Of a stretch of 64,000 nucleotides of DNA, positions 22,531 through 30,869 are shown piece after piece. The stretch lies in contig JAENYE010000003.1 of assembly GCA_016841955.1 (NCBI GenBank), positions 64,497-128,496 of the forward strand, in the 5' to 3' direction. Each line of letters starts with the position of its first letter. Position 1 is the first letter of the stretch. The position numbers and the translations under genes are program-made. Under the pieces are notes generated by a model, which saw nothing but the letters and a program-made list of their open reading frames with translations, was not told the origin of the DNA and did no database searches. This stretch comes from Methanobacteriota archaeon (GTDB taxonomy: Archaea > Halobacteriota > Methanomicrobia > Methanomicrobiales > Methanoculleaceae).

Positions 22531-22829
22531 GGGGCGTCGGCAAACGGTATCCGGTCAAGAATGCAGAGGTATCGCTATCGTAAGTGCATCCTTCTCGAAG
22601 AGGATGAGATCATTGAGTGTCTTCGTATCGGCAGGATATTGTAGTATCTCGCATCCGGAAGAACAGGCGTTTCTGGACCTCTTCTACCACTCCCCGAATA
22701 TCTCGAGGTGAAAGACCGAGCCTACGAGACCCTAGCAATACAGAGAACTATTTGTTATGGGTAGACTTCAGAGGGTGAATCACCGGAGATGCAGGTTTCA
22801 TCATCCGGTGAACGTCTCTCTTTCGATCA
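22531..22829. other. Intergenic region at the left edge of the island
   Basis: Base composition falls from GC-rich to AT-richer here. No gene, tRNA or repeat of the tRNA-Leu 3' end is found. Confidence 0.35.
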
Positions 22830-23776
22830 CCATAAGAGAGTGACAATCAGGCCACACGACAGCCCCTTCACGGTTCAAGGGGACATTCTCGAAGTGAAAC
22901 TCTTCTTCCGCTGGCTCACCTTGGGGAGAGAAAGACCTCTTCCAGAACATCAAGATCAAGAAGCCCCGCCGGCACCTCCCGGTAGAGCAACTCATCACCC
23001 GCGAAGACATCATTCGGCTCGTCGACGCTTGCGACAAGCCACGCGACCGGGCGCTGATCATGCTCATGTGGGACTCCGGCGCCCGGATCGGGGAACTCCT
23101 GAGCCTCAACATCGGCCACGTCCAGTTCGACCGCTACGGTGCGGTGGTGATTGTGAACGGCAAGACCGGGATGCGGCGGCTCCGCCTGATCAGCTCCGTG
23201 CCGGACATCCAGACCTGGATCAATATGCACCCACTCCGTGCGGATGCAAACGCACCGCTCTTCGTGACCTCCCGGAGATACGGGCATGAGCCCCGGCGCA
23301 TAAGTGCCCGGACCGTTGAGAACAGACTGAAATACGTCGCCCGGAAACTTGGGATGACAAAACCGATTCACTCGCACGCGATCCGCCATGCCAGGCTCAC
23401 CGATCTGACCCGGAGCAATGGTAAGAAGCAGGGGCTCTCCGAGATGGAACTCCGGCTCGTCGCCGGCTGGGAGAAGAACAGCGCGATGCCGGAGGTGTAT
23501 ATCCACCTATCCGGTGCAGATGTCGAGCGGAAACTACTGGAGAACGCCGGGTTTATCGATGACACTCCCGATCCGGCGGATACTGCGCTCGAGCCCCGGC
23601 AGTGCCCGCGGTGCAAGGCCCTGAACGCTCATGACGCTCTCTACTGTGCGACGTGCTCGATGGCGCTCGTCGAGGAGGCGGCAAGGAAAGTGGACGAGTC
23701 GACGGAGGAGGCGAGGAAAAGTGAGGAGTATCTTGAGTTACTAAAGGCATTGAGAACGGATTTGGGGCTATTGTGA
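22830..23776 (+). pseudogene. Tyrosine recombinase/integrase, 5' end damaged
   Basis: The catalytic half is intact from about 22934: DLFQNIKIKKPRRHLP, ARIGELL (Arg I), NGKTGMRRLRL (Lys), SHAIRHARLTDL (HxxR), GWEKNSAMPEVYIHLS (catalytic Tyr in YIHLS), followed by a zinc ribbon CPRCKALNAHDALYCATC and a coiled tail. This is the XerD-like archaeal type. The preceding part, VKLFFRWLTLGRE, fits the end of the core-binding domain but lies in a different frame, so a frameshift sits near 22928-22935, and most of the N-terminal domain is missing. A shorter product from ATG 23060 or 23066 could still be made, but would lack the DNA-clamping half. It marks the left edge of the AT-rich island. Confidence 0.7.
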
Positions 23777-24215: not shown

Positions 24216-25010
24216 ATGGATGAGACCTTGGTAACTCTCAACTACGAAGACCAAATACAGCAGGTGACCTGGCAAGGTATCAGCATGGCTGACGGGGATT
24301 TGTTCGATTCCTTTATGATAAATGACGTGGCTTCTCGTCTCCGTGATGAAGAGGGAGCAAGACAGTTTGAGTCACATATGCGAGGTCTCGCCACCACAGG
24401 CTTTGCACAGGAAAACCTCAATGAAATTCTGGCAGCGGAAGTTCCCGAAGAGCGAAATTGGGCCATTGGCGAGGCTATAGCTGAAGCCTATTTAGGGAAC
24501 CAACACGACATCACTTGGCCTTGGAATATGGAGCGAGATAAAAGAACCCCAAAGGCTAGCCTTCCTGGTGCTGATTTGATCGGTTTCAAGGTCAATGGGA
24601 AGAGTGTTCGCCTTGTTCTCGGAGAGGTCAAGACATCCAGCGACGCCAATACACCCCCTGGTGTTATGAATGGTCGGAGTGGCATGAGGCATCAGATCGA
24701 CGACCTTGCAAGTGATCTTGGGTTGATCAACCAGCTATTGAAGTGGTTGTGGTTTCGCTGTAAAGGTAAGGAATATGAATCCCATTTCAATGCGGCGATC
24801 ACCGTGTTTCTCGAGTCGGGAAATACAGATGTCGCTCTGTTCGGCGTGCTGATTCGGGACACTCTACCCAACCAACTGGACCTGAAAGCAAGGGGAGAAT
24901 CCTTGTCGGAAACGCTTCAGCATCCAGCAACGTGTCACTTAATCGGAATATACCTCCCCTGCGCCATTGCACATCTTCCAGATCGTGTAGTAGTAGGGTG
25001 TGGGTCATGA
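24216..25010 (+). CDS. HamA-like PD-(D/E)XK nuclease subunit (Hachiman-like)
   Basis: 264 residues from ATG 24216 (GGAG at 24201-24204); an in-frame ATG at 24168/24171 is the alternative. The core LPGADLIGFKVNGKSVRLVLGEVKTS holds D120, E137 and K139, the D..ExK signature of the restriction-endonuclease fold. After it comes a helical region (HQIDDLASDLGLINQLLKWLW) and strands AAITVFLES and ALFGVLIRD, the layout of HamA/DUF1837 proteins. Its 4-base overlap (ATGA) with a large SF2 helicase gives the gene pair of the Hachiman anti-phage system, in which HamA is the nuclease that is released or activated when HamB meets damaged or foreign DNA. Assignment rests on gene order and motif, not on an alignment. 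Confidence 0.6.
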   Translation: MDETLVTLNYEDQIQQVTWQGISMADGDLFDSFMINDVASRLRDEEGARQFESHMRGLATTGFAQENLNEILAAEVPEERNWAIGEAIAEAYLGNQHDITWPWNMERDKRTPKASLPGADLIGFKVNGKSVRLVLGEVKTSSDANTPPGVMNGRSGMRHQIDDLASDLGLINQLLKWLWFRCKGKEYESHFNAAITVFLESGNTDVALFGVLIRDTLPNQLDLKARGESLSETLQHPATCHLIGIYLPCAIAHLPDRVVVGCGS

Positions 25011-28000
25011 GTCACTGGTTGCTTGAGGCATTAGGCGACACAAGGATGCAGGCTCTAAAACAGGCTAGTTATATTCAGATTCATCGCGAGCTCCAAGACG
25101 ATCCGCTTGATGAAGATGACACAATAATTCGGCGTGCTGCTGAAGCATTGGAGATGGTTGTTCTCGATTTGATACTTGAGGGAATAACAGACGACGAAGG
25201 CAAACGAGAAGAATTACGTCTTTCAGCGGCAGATTCCTTCCGACTTCTTCGAGTGTTGCCTAGGCCAGACGAACCCATCGAAGTTGCAACGTTTTTACTA
25301 CGTGCCAGTGCGCTCGCTGTATTGGGAGATATGGGCGCAGATGCGGCACGAATGTTACGTGAAGAAGAGTGGCCCGAGTTACCACTGGAATCGAGTAACT
25401 GGGGCGAACGTACTTGGGGTACCATCCTCGATACTTGGTTGCGCTTGATTCGTAAAAATGGCTGGACTGATCGCGATTTAGTTCTTGAAAGAATTTCCGC
25501 ATTGCGCGATGCACAGGCAGAATTTGAAAAAGATTACCTTGAGGGCTTAGAGCCTAGGAAGGCTAAATCTTCTGCTTTGGAGTTAATTGGCCTCTATCAC
25601 TTAGCCAAGGCGGCCGAAATCTTCGCTCTATTTATTACCGAGGGTGTCGTCGACGGGAAATACCAGATCCAAAAAATACTTGAAATACACTTTGACCGTG
25701 CTCTTGCCGTATGTGAACAATCCCAAATGTTAGAGTTGGAACCTTTGGCTCGGCTCCTTGCTGCATGTTCGTCCCAAATGGTGGAAAACTGCATTTGGAC
25801 CGTTACGCGAGCCGTTAACTCACGGGTAACCCAATTTGTCGAGACGCTAGTTGAGCGTGGTCGCGGCGATCGCGCTATTTTTGATGTCCTCCCTCCCCAG
25901 CGTCGTGCTCTTGCCGAAAAAGGCTTGCTTGGCTCCAGTCGTCGCGCGGTCGTTGTCAGCTTACCTACATCCAGTGGTAAGACTCTAATCGCAGAGTTCC
26001 GTATTCTTCAAGCGCTAAATCAGTTTGAGCCGGAGCGAGGATGGGTGGCCTATCTCGTTCCTACTCGTACACTCGTGAACCAGATTGCGCGAGGATTACG
26101 GCGAGATTTTGAGCCTCTTGACATTGTTGTCGAGCAAGTAAGCCCGGCCTTGGAAGTTGACGGCATCGAAGCCGACCTATTACAACAACGTGACCAAACA
26201 CAGGAGTTCCGCGTACTCGTTACCACACCTGAGAAACTGGATCTGATGCTCCGGCAGGGTTGGGAGAGAAAAATTGGCCGCCCCTTGACGCTCGTTGTCG
26301 TGGATGAGGCCCATAATATCCAAAGTGTTCGCCGTGGATTAAAACTCGAACTGCTTCTAGCGACCATCAACAACGAATGCAGTCGAGCGCAGTTCCTATT
26401 GCTAACGCCTTTCATCAGTAATGCACGCGAAGTCGCAAGGTGGTTAGGTGGGCTCAACTCAGACGATGTCAGCCTCGCACTCGATTGGCAACCCAATGAT
26501 CGAGTCATTGGGGTAGTCCAAGCAGAGAAAGGTGAATCCCTGACCAGGCAGAGTTTCGATTATCATCTCCGCATGGAAACCGTTCAAACAACAAGGAATA
26601 CGCTTTTTGTGGATGATCTGCTAACTATCCCGAAGAACACGGAAATAGCCCCTACATACAGAAAGGTGTCAAATCAAAGTGCCTTGGCCGCCGTAACCGC
26701 ACAGCGATTGCAAAAGCGCGGTCCGGTAATCGTGATGCATGCAAGGCCGGACTGGGTATGGTCGTTGGCTGAGCAATTTAAAATTGACGCAAACAAATCG
26801 CATCAGTCAACAGAAAAAATCAAACTTGTTCAGGACTTTCTTACCCTCGAGTTTGGTAACAGTTTCCCTTTGATTGACCTATTATCCTATGGTGTCGGTG
26901 TTCATCATGCGGGGCTATCAGATGATGTCCGAGCCCTGGTAGAATGGCTGTTCGAAGAAAATCAGCTGAAATTTCTAGTTGCGACCACGACTATAGCACA
27001 GGGTGTGAACTTCCCTGTAACCGGTGTTGTCATGGCTTCGCATCAATATCCATTCGGCGAGGATATGCCGCCCGAGGATTTCTGGAATATTGCAGGTAGA
27101 GCCGGACGAGTTGACCAAGGTCACCTTGGAGTCGTGGCATTAGTTGCAGAAAACGCCCACAAGGCAGAACTCCTTCGTAATTTCATCAATAAGCAAGAAG
27201 GTGAGCTCAATTCAGCTCTCCTCATCCTGGCAAGGGAAGCTGGCGATATGTTGGGTGATCTCGGAAAGATCGTTTATATGAAACCAGAATGGTCTACTTT
27301 CGTCCAATATATAACTCACTCTTATTACCAAATGGAGGAACCAAAAGAATTTTCGGATGAGATCGAACAGATCATGCGTGGAACTTTCGGATTTGAAAAA
27401 CTGCGAAGTCAGAGTTCTACTTTGGCAAATCGCCTCCTTGAGGGAATTCACAGGTATACAGAATACCTTCAGGAGCCAGGCCAACCGTTGAAATTGGTTG
27501 ATAGCACTGGTTTTTCTCTACAAAGTGTTTGCGGAGTGTTATACGCTGCTCATAATGAAGGCATCCGAGATTCGATGTGGAATCCAGAGTCTTTGTTTAG
27601 CCAAGACAACCCAGACCTGCAAGGAATGATGGGTGTTTTACTCAGAGTTCCGGAGTTGCGTGAGAATCTCGAAGCAGTAACCGGTGGAAAAAATCCAGAT
27701 GGCAGGAAACTTGCACTAATTGTCAAGGATTGGGTGAATGGGGCTTCAATTCCAGATATCGCCAGCCGCTATTTTATGAAAGAAGATGGCGATATTACAA
27801 CAGCGATGACGACATGTGGGCAAAACCTCTTTGGCAGGTTGACACATACTACCGCGTGGGGCTTGGGAGCCTTGCTGTCAATAACCGGGAGCGATCTGCC
27901 AGAGGAGCAATTCCAATCCCTTAAAAATTTGCCCTCTCGTGTATATTATGGCGTCAACGACGATGCAGCAATTGTTTTACGGTTGTTGGGTGTGCCCAGA

Positions 28001-28171
28001 ACTGCAGCCCCCCCTCTTGCTGCATCAATGGATGATATTTTTGAACACCCCCTTAAGAGTGTTAGAGCACAACTACGAAGCATGGGGGAAGAAAACTGGA
28101 CCCAAGCTCTTGGGGAACGCGAAGGTCAGGTCTACCGAAAGGTTTGGCGTGTCTTAGAAGGACTTGATTAG
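25007..28171 (+). CDS. HamB-like Ski2-type SF2 helicase (Hachiman-like)
   Basis: 1054 residues. Motifs in order: LPTSSGKTL (Walker A, about 318-326), VAYLVPTRTLVNQ (Ia), LVTTPEKLD (Ib), VVVDEAHNI (DEAH, about 431-439), LLTPFISNA (III), then the second RecA domain with VIVMHAR, VGVHHAGLS (IV/V region), LVATTTIAQGVNFP and NIAGRAGRVDQG (VI, near 694). Such QGVN/AGRAGR motifs mark Ski2/Hel308-like helicases. The 310-residue helical N-terminus and 330-residue C-terminus are extra, as in large defence helicases. The gene begins at ATG 25007 overlapping the nuclease stop. The pair is AT-rich with codon use unlike the flanking genes, which points to transfer. Confidence 0.8.
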   Translation: MSHWLLEALGDTRMQALKQASYIQIHRELQDDPLDEDDTIIRRAAEALEMVVLDLILEGITDDEGKREELRLSAADSFRLLRVLPRPDEPIEVATFLLRASALAVLGDMGADAARMLREEEWPELPLESSNWGERTWGTILDTWLRLIRKNGWTDRDLVLERISALRDAQAEFEKDYLEGLEPRKAKSSALELIGLYHLAKAAEIFALFITEGVVDGKYQIQKILEIHFDRALAVCEQSQMLELEPLARLLAACSSQMVENCIWTVTRAVNSRVTQFVETLVERGRGDRAIFDVLPPQRRALAEKGLLGSSRRAVVVSLPTSSGKTLIAEFRILQALNQFEPERGWVAYLVPTRTLVNQIARGLRRDFEPLDIVVEQVSPALEVDGIEADLLQQRDQTQEFRVLVTTPEKLDLMLRQGWERKIGRPLTLVVVDEAHNIQSVRRGLKLELLLATINNECSRAQFLLLTPFISNAREVARWLGGLNSDDVSLALDWQPNDRVIGVVQAEKGESLTRQSFDYHLRMETVQTTRNTLFVDDLLTIPKNTEIAPTYRKVSNQSALAAVTAQRLQKRGPVIVMHARPDWVWSLAEQFKIDANKSHQSTEKIKLVQDFLTLEFGNSFPLIDLLSYGVGVHHAGLSDDVRALVEWLFEENQLKFLVATTTIAQGVNFPVTGVVMASHQYPFGEDMPPEDFWNIAGRAGRVDQGHLGVVALVAENAHKAELLRNFINKQEGELNSALLILAREAGDMLGDLGKIVYMKPEWSTFVQYITHSYYQMEEPKEFSDEIEQIMRGTFGFEKLRSQSSTLANRLLEGIHRYTEYLQEPGQPLKLVDSTGFSLQSVCGVLYAAHNEGIRDSMWNPESLFSQDNPDLQGMMGVLLRVPELRENLEAVTGGKNPDGRKLALIVKDWVNGASIPDIASRYFMKEDGDITTAMTTCGQNLFGRLTHTTAWGLGALLSITGSDLPEEQFQSLKNLPSRVYYGVNDDAAIVLRLLGVPRTAAPPLAASMDDIFEHPLKSVRAQLRSMGEENWTQALGEREGQVYRKVWRVLEGLD

Positions 28172-29074: not shown

Positions 29075-30262
29075 CTAAGAGTCAGCATGTCTTCGCTTAT
29101 ATTGTGAAAGATGTACATATTCCTCAAAAAGGCTATCAATTGTCCCCTCAAGGCCGTCTGCCCAGATTCCAAGACGACGTAGCTCATCCGCAACCTCCTC
29201 CAATTCCGTATACGCAGGTTCGGAGATATCATCCTCCGCAGGTATTGATTGCAGTTTCTCGGTATTATTCTTCCAAGAGGCAATTAACTGCTCATATTTA
29301 CCACAAGCATCTTCAACGCGCCCGGGTATCAAACCAGGATCATATGTGAATAACTGAAGCCAGTTTGACCTGACTTTGGTATTTTCATGCACACAGCTAA
29401 GTAATTCTTTCAGCTCCCGTGGTAAAGCAACGAACACGGATTGTAGAGAGTTTAACCCATATGTATAGATAAAGTCAAGACACCAGACCATTAGGTTCTG
29501 TGCTTTAATGTCACTAAGATCTCCAAATCTGCTCGAATCTTCGAACATGAGTTGAGCCATGCTGAGGCACCTGTTGACGGTAACGGCTCTATCTTTCATG
29601 TCCCAGAGCATCCTCATAAGTTCTTGTGATGGTGGTTGGCTCGGGGTATTGGAGGGTTGATTATCAATCACCTCAATTATACCTTTCATAATTCGGAACA
29701 TTGCCATTTTAGCAGGCGAATTGTCGGCCTTGAGTTTAAGAGTGAGGTCAGATTCATTCAGTCTTTCTTCAAGAATCTTCTCATCCCAAAATCCCACTTC
29801 AGAAGCGAAAGTTTCCCGTTGGTCCCTAAAACTCTGAGCTGCCCCATTAACATATACGTACATGCGCTCGTGTGCATCTCCTTGAGACAGTTCTAGGACC
29901 TGTCCTAAGTCGTTCTTTTTCGGTTTCTTTTTTACAGCGACAATGATTTTTTTGCCGTCAGAATCTCGCCTGCATTCGAGATCTATACCTTTCTCGTTAG
30001 CAGGATCCTCTCTATGACGCCAGATAACGCTAAAGCCAAGGATCTCAAAATGTAGTTTAAGGATTGCTTGTATTTCTACTTCAGAGAATGATGGCCAGGG
30101 TATCCCTTTTGAAATTGGTTTGCCGAGGGACATGTTCAATTTAGCAAATTGTTCATCCCATTCTTGAATGCCTCTCTCGGAACCCCTGAGAATGCTGGTC
30201 GTGATATCAAAGAGTGATGTATTAGAAGATTCTCTTGGCTTTGCTTTTTTGGCCTTCTCCAT
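29075..30262 (-). CDS. Restriction-endonuclease-fold-like protein of unknown function
   Basis: 395 residues from ATG 30262, whose codon lies about 25 bases after a TATA box (30282-30292), so the message looks leaderless; the open frame goes back to a TTG at 30319. Residues 60-150 have the layout of an Mrr-like nuclease domain: SEVEIQAILKLHFEILGFSVIWRH, GIDLECRRD, IIVAVKKKPKKNDLGQVLEL. The Asp of the first acidic site (GID) and the Lys of the third are there, but the residue two before the Lys is Ala rather than Glu/Gln, so activity is doubtful. The remaining 240 residues are mostly helical, with no known domain. It lies in the island beside the defence pair but on the other strand. Confidence 0.6.
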   Translation of the reverse strand: MEKAKKAKPRESSNTSLFDITTSILRGSERGIQEWDEQFAKLNMSLGKPISKGIPWPSFSEVEIQAILKLHFEILGFSVIWRHREDPANEKGIDLECRRDSDGKKIIVAVKKKPKKNDLGQVLELSQGDAHERMYVYVNGAAQSFRDQRETFASEVGFWDEKILEERLNESDLTLKLKADNSPAKMAMFRIMKGIIEVIDNQPSNTPSQPPSQELMRMLWDMKDRAVTVNRCLSMAQLMFEDSSRFGDLSDIKAQNLMVWCLDFIYTYGLNSLQSVFVALPRELKELLSCVHENTKVRSNWLQLFTYDPGLIPGRVEDACGKYEQLIASWKNNTEKLQSIPAEDDISEPAYTELEEVADELRRLGIWADGLEGTIDSLFEEYVHLSQYKRRHADS

Positions 30263-30281
30263 AATGAGAAGGGTGCTTCCT

Positions 30282-30292
30282 TGATTTAAATC
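30282..30292 (-). promoter_or_regulatory. TATA box for the 29075-30262 gene
   Basis: Reads GATTTAAATCA on the minus strand; its centre is 25 bases from ATG 30262. Confidence 0.5.
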
Positions 30293-30332
30293 GATTTTGA
30301 TGAAATGGTTGCTCGTCAAAAAGGCCAGATCG

Positions 30333-30343: not shown

Positions 30344-30363
30344 CATTTTAAAGAATTAGATTG

Positions 30364-30675
30364 ATGCCTTCATTTCCGGATGGAGTTCATAGAGCCATTA
30401 TTGAAGGTTGTTCTGGTGTTGCAACTTATGCTATTGTTAGTGCGCTATTTTTAGCATCTGGGATGCCACATGCAATTGTCATTTTTAATATATTTTCAAT
30501 AATCTCAGTAGTCTATCTCTTTGACAAAATGACCTATTGGTCTTTAACCTACATGTTGGGATGGGCATTTGGTCTATTGGTAATTGGGACCCATGTCTTT
30601 GGTTTGATAGAACTGCTATTTTATGGTGGAATCACTGGAATTGCTTTGTATATCAAAATTAATAACCGACTATAA
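30364..30675 (+). CDS. Small four-helix membrane protein
   Basis: 103 residues from ATG 30364 (the codon before is a TTG). Hydrophobic segments at about 18-33 (TYAIVSALFLASG), 38-53 (IVIFNIFSIISVVYLF), 57-75 (YWSLTYMLGWAFGLLVI) and 78-97 (VFGLIELLFYGGITGIALYI). AT-rich like the rest of the island and the last gene before tRNA-Leu. I do not recognise the family. As a small membrane protein in a defence island it could be a toxin or a sensor, but nothing in the sequence shows it. Confidence 0.6.
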   Translation: MPSFPDGVHRAIIEGCSGVATYAIVSALFLASGMPHAIVIFNIFSIISVVYLFDKMTYWSLTYMLGWAFGLLVIGTHVFGLIELLFYGGITGIALYIKINNRL

Positions 30676-30784: not shown

Positions 30785-30869
30785 TGCGAGGGATGGGATT
30801 CGAACCCATGGACCCCTGCGGGAGTGGATCTTAAGTCCACCGCCTTTGGCCGGGCTTGGCTACCCTCGC
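30785..30869 (-). tRNA. tRNA-Leu (anticodon UAA)
   Basis: Minus-strand sequence folds as a class II tRNA of 85 bases: acceptor GCGAGGG paired with CCCTCGC, discriminator A at 30785, D arm from GCCAAGCCCGG to CCAAAGGC, anticodon stem GTGGA/TCCAC with loop CTTAAGA (anticodon TAA), a long variable arm TCCCGCAGGGGTCC and T arm ATGGGTTCGAATCCCAT. No intron and no encoded CCA. Its 3' end faces the AT-rich island, the usual orientation for tRNA genes used as integration targets. Confidence 0.95.

What the first reader, a model, noticed from the sequence alone, without database searches (positions are those of the whole stretch)
24216..28171. Hachiman-like nuclease-helicase pair in an archaeal island
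A PD-(D/E)XK protein (D120, E137, K139) is coupled by ATGA to a 1054-residue Ski2-type helicase, the gene order of Hachiman HamA/HamB. The active-site spacing and size fit; similarity is strong in motifs but has not been aligned.
Basis: partly seen in the sequence, partly recalled or inferred. Interest (0 to 1): 0.62.

Follow-up and report, generated by a model that had tools for sequence, protein, structure and literature searches.

The report
Divergent Hachiman-like defence pair in archaeon
Two overlapping genes on a tRNA-linked island of an archaeal chromosome encode a DNA-cutting enzyme and a DNA-unwinding motor; by predicted shape they belong to a distant branch of the Hachiman antiviral system, a branch so far listed only as an untested candidate (PDC-M23) and often found inside restriction-modification operons.

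Summary
A 264-aa PD-(D/E)XK protein (24216-25010; D120, E137, K139) overlaps by ATGA a 1054-aa Ski2-type helicase (25007-28171). Curated HamA profiles barely respond (Pfam HamA 11.2 bits against a cut-off of 25; PADLOC HamA E 0.002). Both proteins match PADLOC's untested candidate PDC-M23 far better (E 1e-102; 1401 bits). Fold-level evidence rescues the idea: AlphaFold2 models of A and B each have Hachiman as top PDB match (HamA 8vxy_A, the only significant hit; HamB 8vx9_B, TM 0.73 against 0.49 for Hel308). Profile-profile alignment superposes the HamA catalytic residues. So PDC-M23 is a divergent branch of the Hachiman superfamily, and the window holds an intact stand-alone copy in a low-GC island at tRNA-Leu(UAA). 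The likely mechanism is a HamAB-type DNA-integrity sensor with an abortive nuclease; this is inferred, not tested. Among 82 relatives, 34 lie in type I R-M operons, typically hsdM-hsdS-A-B-hsdR and always in the same orientation; the window's copy does not. This pattern fits the guilt-by-embedding origin of PADLOC candidates. Moderate interest.

The parts
24216..25010 (+). Gene A: 264-aa PD-(D/E)XK nuclease, PDC-M23A / HamA-like
   Evidence: AF2 pLDDT 92.3; only significant PDB fold match is HamA 8vxy_A
24471..24473 (+). Codon of E86 (aligns with HamA E84 of the E. coli plasmid homologue)
   Evidence: invariant 73/73; hhalign
24534..24545 (+). Codons R107-D-K-R110, an RxxR in the loop that corresponds to the HamB-binding loop of HamA (102-117)
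   Evidence: R107 72/73, D108 73/73, R110 71/73 plus 2 K; loop 98-120 in the model; equivalence to the (R/K)XX(R/K) interface motif of PMC12278908 is inferred
24573..24575 (+). Codon of catalytic D120
   Evidence: invariant 73/73
24624..24632 (+). Codons E137-V-K139, catalytic ExK
   Evidence: invariant 73/73; aligns with E137/K139 of the E. coli HamA
25007..25010 (+). ATGA translational coupling of A and B
   Evidence: sequence; same 4-base overlap in 60 of 88 loci
25007..28171 (+). Gene B: 1054-aa Ski2-type SF2 helicase, PDC-M23B / HamB-like
   Evidence: AF2 pLDDT 86.7; top three PDB fold matches are HamB
25016..25858 (+). B residues 4-284: all-helical N-terminal bundle, equivalent of HamB NAH (HamA-binding)
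   Evidence: DSSP on the model; HamB match spans the whole length
25964..25984 (+). Walker A PTSSGKT (320-326)
26303..26314 (+). Walker B DEAH (433-436)
27086..27109 (+). Motif VI NIAGRAGR (694-701)
27155..28162 (+). B residues 717-1052: all-helical C-terminal region; no beta-barrel (OB-like) domain in the model
   Evidence: DSSP on the model
22789..23776 (+). Tyrosine integrase remnant at the far end of the island; catalytic part in 23060-23776, frame shifted near 22920
   Evidence: Pfam Phage_integrase 1e-12; sequence
30785..30869 (-). tRNA-Leu(UAA); its 3' end faces the island
   Evidence: flank to its right conserved in relatives, island side replaced

Best explanation
The pair is an intact, stand-alone copy of PDC-M23, a divergent branch of the Hachiman superfamily. 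B (HamB-like) would bind A (HamA-like) through its N-terminal helical bundle, patrol DNA, and on loading a free or damaged 3' DNA end use ATP to move and release or activate A. A would then cut DNA non-specifically with its D120/E137/K139 metal site, destroying invader and host DNA and aborting infection. Shown here: the two intact genes, their coupling, the conserved active sites, the predicted fold of both proteins, patchy distribution and island setting. Inferred from the ECOR31 HamAB work (PMC12278908): complex formation, end sensing, abortive DNA degradation, and that it defends at all.
For: PADLOC PDC-M23A E 1.3e-102 over residues 1-258 and PDC-M23B 1401 bits over 2-1052. Foldseek of the A model against the PDB: one hit below E 0.001, HamA 8vxy_A, E 7.7e-7, probability 1.00, TM 0.55/0.58. 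Foldseek of the B model: HamB 8vx9_B E 2.7e-30, TM 0.73, against Hel308 TM 0.48-0.49. hhalign of 73 A sequences with annotated HamA: E 4e-6, probability 87%, and with a wider HamA set E 1.6e-6, 90%, pairing E86, D120, E137 and K139 with the HamA residues. HamA interface regions 30-63, 102-117 and 159-199 (PMC12278908) have counterparts in the A model: helices 28-42 and 45-58, loop 98-120, helices 157-200. [quoted passage not shown] B falls in one clade with HamBs (100/100), apart from the host's own Hel308. Only 5 of 199 genomes of the order carry A; the pair occurs across many bacterial and archaeal phyla.
Against: Curated HamA thresholds are not reached. Identity to HamA and HamB is only 15-18%. 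The OB-like barrel of ECOR31 HamB is missing from the model. HamB-like branches are long and their joins uncertain. No PDC-M23 member has a published test in the library searched; PDCs are described as mostly unvalidated. No complex of A and B was modelled.
Confidence: 0.77

Rival explanations
1. PDC-M23AB is an accessory module of type I restriction-modification: it acts on DNA ends or stalled complexes made by HsdR, or as a fallback when a virus blocks HsdR, and stand-alone copies such as the window's use the host's R-M system in trans.
For: 34 of 82 loci have hsd genes nearby, all on the same strand; 19 have hsdM/hsdS and hsdR around A-B, often with A overlapping hsdS by 4 bases. Canonical HamAB controls: 1 of 31. 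The window's genome has one unlinked type I R-M locus. Precedents: R-M-linked PrrC and break-activated RloC (PMC3874168, PMC2610378) and TgvAB embedded in a V. cholerae type I operon (PMC11411939).
Against: More than half of the loci, the window's included, have no hsd genes next to them; the association changes at least 16 times on the tree. TgvAB worked without HsdR restriction (PMC11411939), so embedding alone does not show cooperation.
Confidence: 0.25
2. A and B take the place of HsdR, that is, they are a split restriction subunit (nuclease plus translocase) driven by HsdM/HsdS.
For: Same enzyme types as HsdR; A follows hsdS directly in many loci.
Against: A separate HsdR follows B in about 20 loci; B folds as HamB and Ski2, not HsdR; the window copy has no HsdM/HsdS beside it.
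Confidence: 0.03
3. A housekeeping DNA-repair pair related to Hel308 rather than a defence system.
For: B is Hel308-related.
Against: Present in 5 of 199 genomes of the order; the genome has its own Hel308; island location beside a broken integrase and a tRNA gene; closest structural matches are the Hachiman proteins.
Confidence: 0.05

Closest known systems
PDC-M23 (PADLOC-DB 2.0 models PDLC04527-04529 for A, PDLC04530-04532 for B)
   Same: Both proteins match end to end; same gene order and overlap as the relatives fetched here
   Different: No structural difference seen; the window copy is free-standing rather than embedded in an R-M operon
Hachiman HamAB (ECOR31, PDB 8vx9/8vxa/8vxy; PMC12278908)
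   Same: Fold of both proteins, E/D-ExK active site, three HamA interface elements, N-terminal helical bundle of HamB, gene order
   Different: 15-18% identity; below curated HamA thresholds; no OB-like barrel in the B model; 1054 against 1174 aa; many relatives sit in type I R-M operons
AbpAB (Hachiman variant)
   Same: Nuclease plus Ski2-like helicase operon
   Different: AbpA carries an extra N-terminal nuclease and a dead HamA site (PMC12278908); here a single domain with an intact site
Hel308
   Same: Ski2 helicase core
   Different: Lacks the N-terminal HamA-binding bundle and partner nuclease; TM 0.48-0.49 against 0.73 for HamB
Type I R-M embedded or linked defence genes (PrrC, RloC, TgvAB)
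   Same: Relatives of this pair are embedded in hsd operons
   Different: Unrelated proteins; window copy not embedded

Membership tests
PDC-M23 (PADLOC candidate) | PDC-M23A model match | tested here: met
   E 1.3e-102, residues 1-258 to model 1-258/263
PDC-M23 (PADLOC candidate) | PDC-M23B model match next to A | tested here: met
   1401 bits, residues 2-1052 to model 4-1059/1060; ATGA overlap
Hachiman (canonical HamAB) | HamA/DUF1837 profile above curated cut-off | tested here: not met
   PF08878 11.2 bits against 25; PADLOC HamA E 0.0019 and 0.0049
Hachiman (canonical HamAB) | HamA fold | tested here: met
   8vxy_A E 7.7e-7, probability 1.00, sole significant PDB hit of the AF2 model
Hachiman (canonical HamAB) | D-E(X)K nuclease active site | tested here: met
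   D120, E137, K139 invariant 73/73 and aligned with HamA
Hachiman (canonical HamAB) | HamB Ski2-type helicase with intact motifs | tested here: met
   HamB1 models to E 1.3e-66; motifs; fold
Hachiman (canonical HamAB) | N-terminal helical HamA-binding bundle of HamB | tested here: met
   residues 4-284 all helical in the model; that it binds A is inferred
Hachiman (canonical HamAB) | C-terminal OB-like barrel seen in ECOR31 HamB (described there, not stated to be universal) | tested here: not met
   no strand after residue 714 in the model
Hachiman (canonical HamAB) | A-B complex; DNA-damage-triggered DNA degradation; phage defence | not testable with these tools
   needs experiment
AbpAB | extra N-terminal nuclease domain and inactive HamA site | tested here: not met
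   264-aa single domain with intact site
Type I R-M (split HsdR) | hsdM and hsdS in the same operon, no separate HsdR | tested here: not met
   none beside the window pair; HsdR follows B in embedded relatives

The most novel reading that the evidence does not exclude
PDC-M23 is a Hachiman branch specialised to work with type I restriction-modification: HsdR cutting or stalled hsd complexes supply the DNA ends that fire the HamB-like sensor, making a two-stage defence, and the module has repeatedly moved between hsd operons and free-standing islands such as this one, where it works alone or with the host's unlinked R-M system.
Probability: 0.25. Interest if true: 0.65.

Novelty: new variant of a known kind. 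Interest (0 to 1): 0.42.

Why it matters
It gives an untested PADLOC candidate a concrete identity and a testable mechanism, widens Hachiman beyond what curated HamA profiles detect, and offers an archaeal copy in a lineage where few experimentally studied defence systems are known. The recurrent order hsdM-hsdS-A-B-hsdR makes a direct experiment possible: does restriction by type I enzymes trigger a DNA-end-sensing abortive nuclease?

Tried and rejected
Canonical Hachiman by profile: rejected for A, which led to the fold test. A and B as a replacement for HsdR: suggested by hsdS directly upstream, rejected because HsdR follows B. Direct att repeats of the tRNA-Leu 3' end: none of 15 bases or more found in the window. 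The 414-aa gene 29075-30319 as a third component: rejected, its only relative in 199 genomes of the order is in G059, which has no A. A in phage and plasmid records: no tblastn match; two viral-contig hits. Control scans of viral contigs for canonical HamA gave only two loci, so the control set was built from archaeal genomes, plasmids, those two and one E. coli chromosome; it is small, plasmid-heavy and not phylogenetically corrected. The empty-site test was incomplete: the right flank is conserved in relatives but the left flank lies elsewhere in them.

Full report
WHAT IS THERE. The window carries two intact overlapping genes. A (24216-25010) encodes 264 aa; B (25007-28171) encodes 1054 aa; the stop of A and start of B share ATGA. 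They lie in a low-GC stretch (0.48-0.52 against 0.60-0.68 around it) between a broken tyrosine integrase (about 22789-23776) and the 3' end of a tRNA-Leu(UAA) gene (30785-30869, minus strand). In five congeneric genomes the sequence to the right of this tRNA is conserved (about 82-90% identity) while the island side is not; one of them, G034, has a relative of the same integrase and a second partial copy of the tRNA region nearby. So this is a variable integration site, although no intact att repeat was found in the window. A is present once in the genome and in only 5 of 199 genomes of the order.

WHAT THE PROTEINS ARE. Against PADLOC, A matches PDC-M23A (E 1.3e-102) and B matches PDC-M23B (1401 bits) over their whole lengths; HamA models reach only E 0.0019 and HamB1 models E 1.3e-66. 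Pfam HamA scores 11.2 bits with a cut-off of 25. Sequence alone therefore files the pair under PDC-M23, not canonical Hachiman. A and B were found side by side in 85 of 88 loci, 60 with the identical 4-base overlap; of the three others one is cut by its contig end and the other two have room for B downstream of A (inference). Across 73 A sequences E86, E90, D120, E137, K139, Q160 and R214 never vary; across 57 B sequences Walker A, DEAH and motif VI are invariant or nearly so.

FOLD TEST. AlphaFold2 with these alignments gave confident models (A pLDDT 92.3; B 86.7). Foldseek against the PDB returned a single significant match for A: HamA of E. coli ECOR31, 8vxy_A, E 7.7e-7, probability 1.00, TM 0.55/0.58, 15% identity. 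For B the first three matches are HamB (8vx9_B, E 2.7e-30, TM 0.73, 1180 alignment columns); Hel308 follows at TM 0.48-0.49. hhalign of the A family with annotated HamA proteins gives E 4e-6 (probability 87%) and with a wider set 1.6e-6 (90%), and pairs E86, D120, E137 and K139 with the HamA residues. The three HamA stretches that bind HamB in the solved complex (30-63, 102-117, 159-199; PMC12278908) have counterparts at 28-58, 98-120 and 157-200 of A, and an RxxR (107/110) conserved in 71-72 of 73 sequences (K in two) lies in the loop. B has an N-terminal helical bundle (4-284) like the one PMC12278908 describes as present in all HamBs and absent from related Ski2 helicases. It lacks beta structure after residue 714, so the OB-like barrel of ECOR31 HamB is missing. 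A core-helicase tree puts PDC-M23B as one clade (91/98) inside a group with HamBs (100/100), apart from the host's own Hel308; the joins among HamB-like branches are long and not reliable.

NEIGHBOURHOOD OF RELATIVES. This was not part of the finding. The commonest neighbour family of A is HsdS. In 34 of 82 loci hsd genes are present, always on the strand of A and B; 19 show hsdM and/or hsdS together with hsdR around the pair, commonly in the order hsdM-hsdS-A-B-hsdR. With at least 2.5 kb of upstream sequence the rate is 25 of 65. In 31 HamAB or HamAB-like control loci it was 1 (Fisher p 3e-5; 0.003 for 25/65 against 1/21 controls with longer flanks; neither is corrected for relatedness, and the control is plasmid-heavy). 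The hsd association changes at least 16 times on a tree of A, so the module moves in and out of such operons. The window copy and the archaeal relatives examined (G031, G063, G160, G171) show no hsd genes in the stretches fetched; the window's genome has one type I R-M locus elsewhere. PADLOC's PDCs were found by guilt-by-embedding (PMC12988326), so embedding itself is probably known to that database's authors; no paper naming PDC-M23 was found.

MECHANISM. Shown: genes, coupling, predicted folds, active sites, signs of mobility. Inferred by homology to ECOR31 HamAB: complex of A and B, surveillance of DNA by B, activation by a free 3' end, non-specific DNA destruction by A and abortive outcome. 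Not shown: defence in any host. Whether embedded copies cooperate with restriction is open; RloC, a relative of the R-M-linked PrrC that is activated by DNA breaks (PMC3874168), and TgvAB, embedded in a type I operon but independent of HsdR restriction (PMC11411939), show that either outcome has precedent.

VERDICT. Observation confirmed. Interpretation partly supported: not canonical Hachiman by curated profiles, but a member of PDC-M23, which fold and active site place in the Hachiman superfamily. Novelty lies in linking an untested candidate to Hachiman and in the stand-alone archaeal copy; the linkage may already be noted in material not held here.

Noticed in passing
L034 2043-14144 and similar loci (L008, L035, L076, L021, L042): PDC-M23AB embedded between hsdS and hsdR of type I R-M operons, same strand in every case.
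   Followed up: yes
window 29075-30319 (-): 414-aa protein with a weak Mrr_cat match (17.4 bits against 21); found in only one other genome of 199 in the order (G059). Possibly a separate defence nuclease.
   Followed up: partly
window 22789-23776: Tyrosine integrase with a frame change near 22920, so probably inactive; carries a C-terminal zinc-ribbon-like segment.
   Followed up: partly
window 30361-30675 (+): 104-aa predicted membrane protein between the Mrr-like gene and the tRNA, only a weak 2TM match.
   Followed up: no
L089 3740-7712 (Rhizobium etli plasmid) and L111 2138-6143 (Ensifer): HamB-like helicase (about 30% identical to B) with an unannotated 285-aa partner, beside CBASS genes in L089; looks like a further nuclease-helicase branch.
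   Followed up: partly
L107 1813-6077 (Deinococcus) and L110 1750-6221 (Streptomyces): HamB-like helicases with unannotated partners of about 290-300 aa.
   Followed up: no
L159 3047-8900 (genome G227): A canonical archaeal HamAB directly behind a type I R-M operon in the order R-M-S.
   Followed up: no
L154 4795-16263 (window's own genome, contig C8): The host's type I R-M locus itself holds extra genes between M, S and R: a 371-aa protein, a 359-aa protein and a 623-aa AAA-like protein.
   Followed up: no
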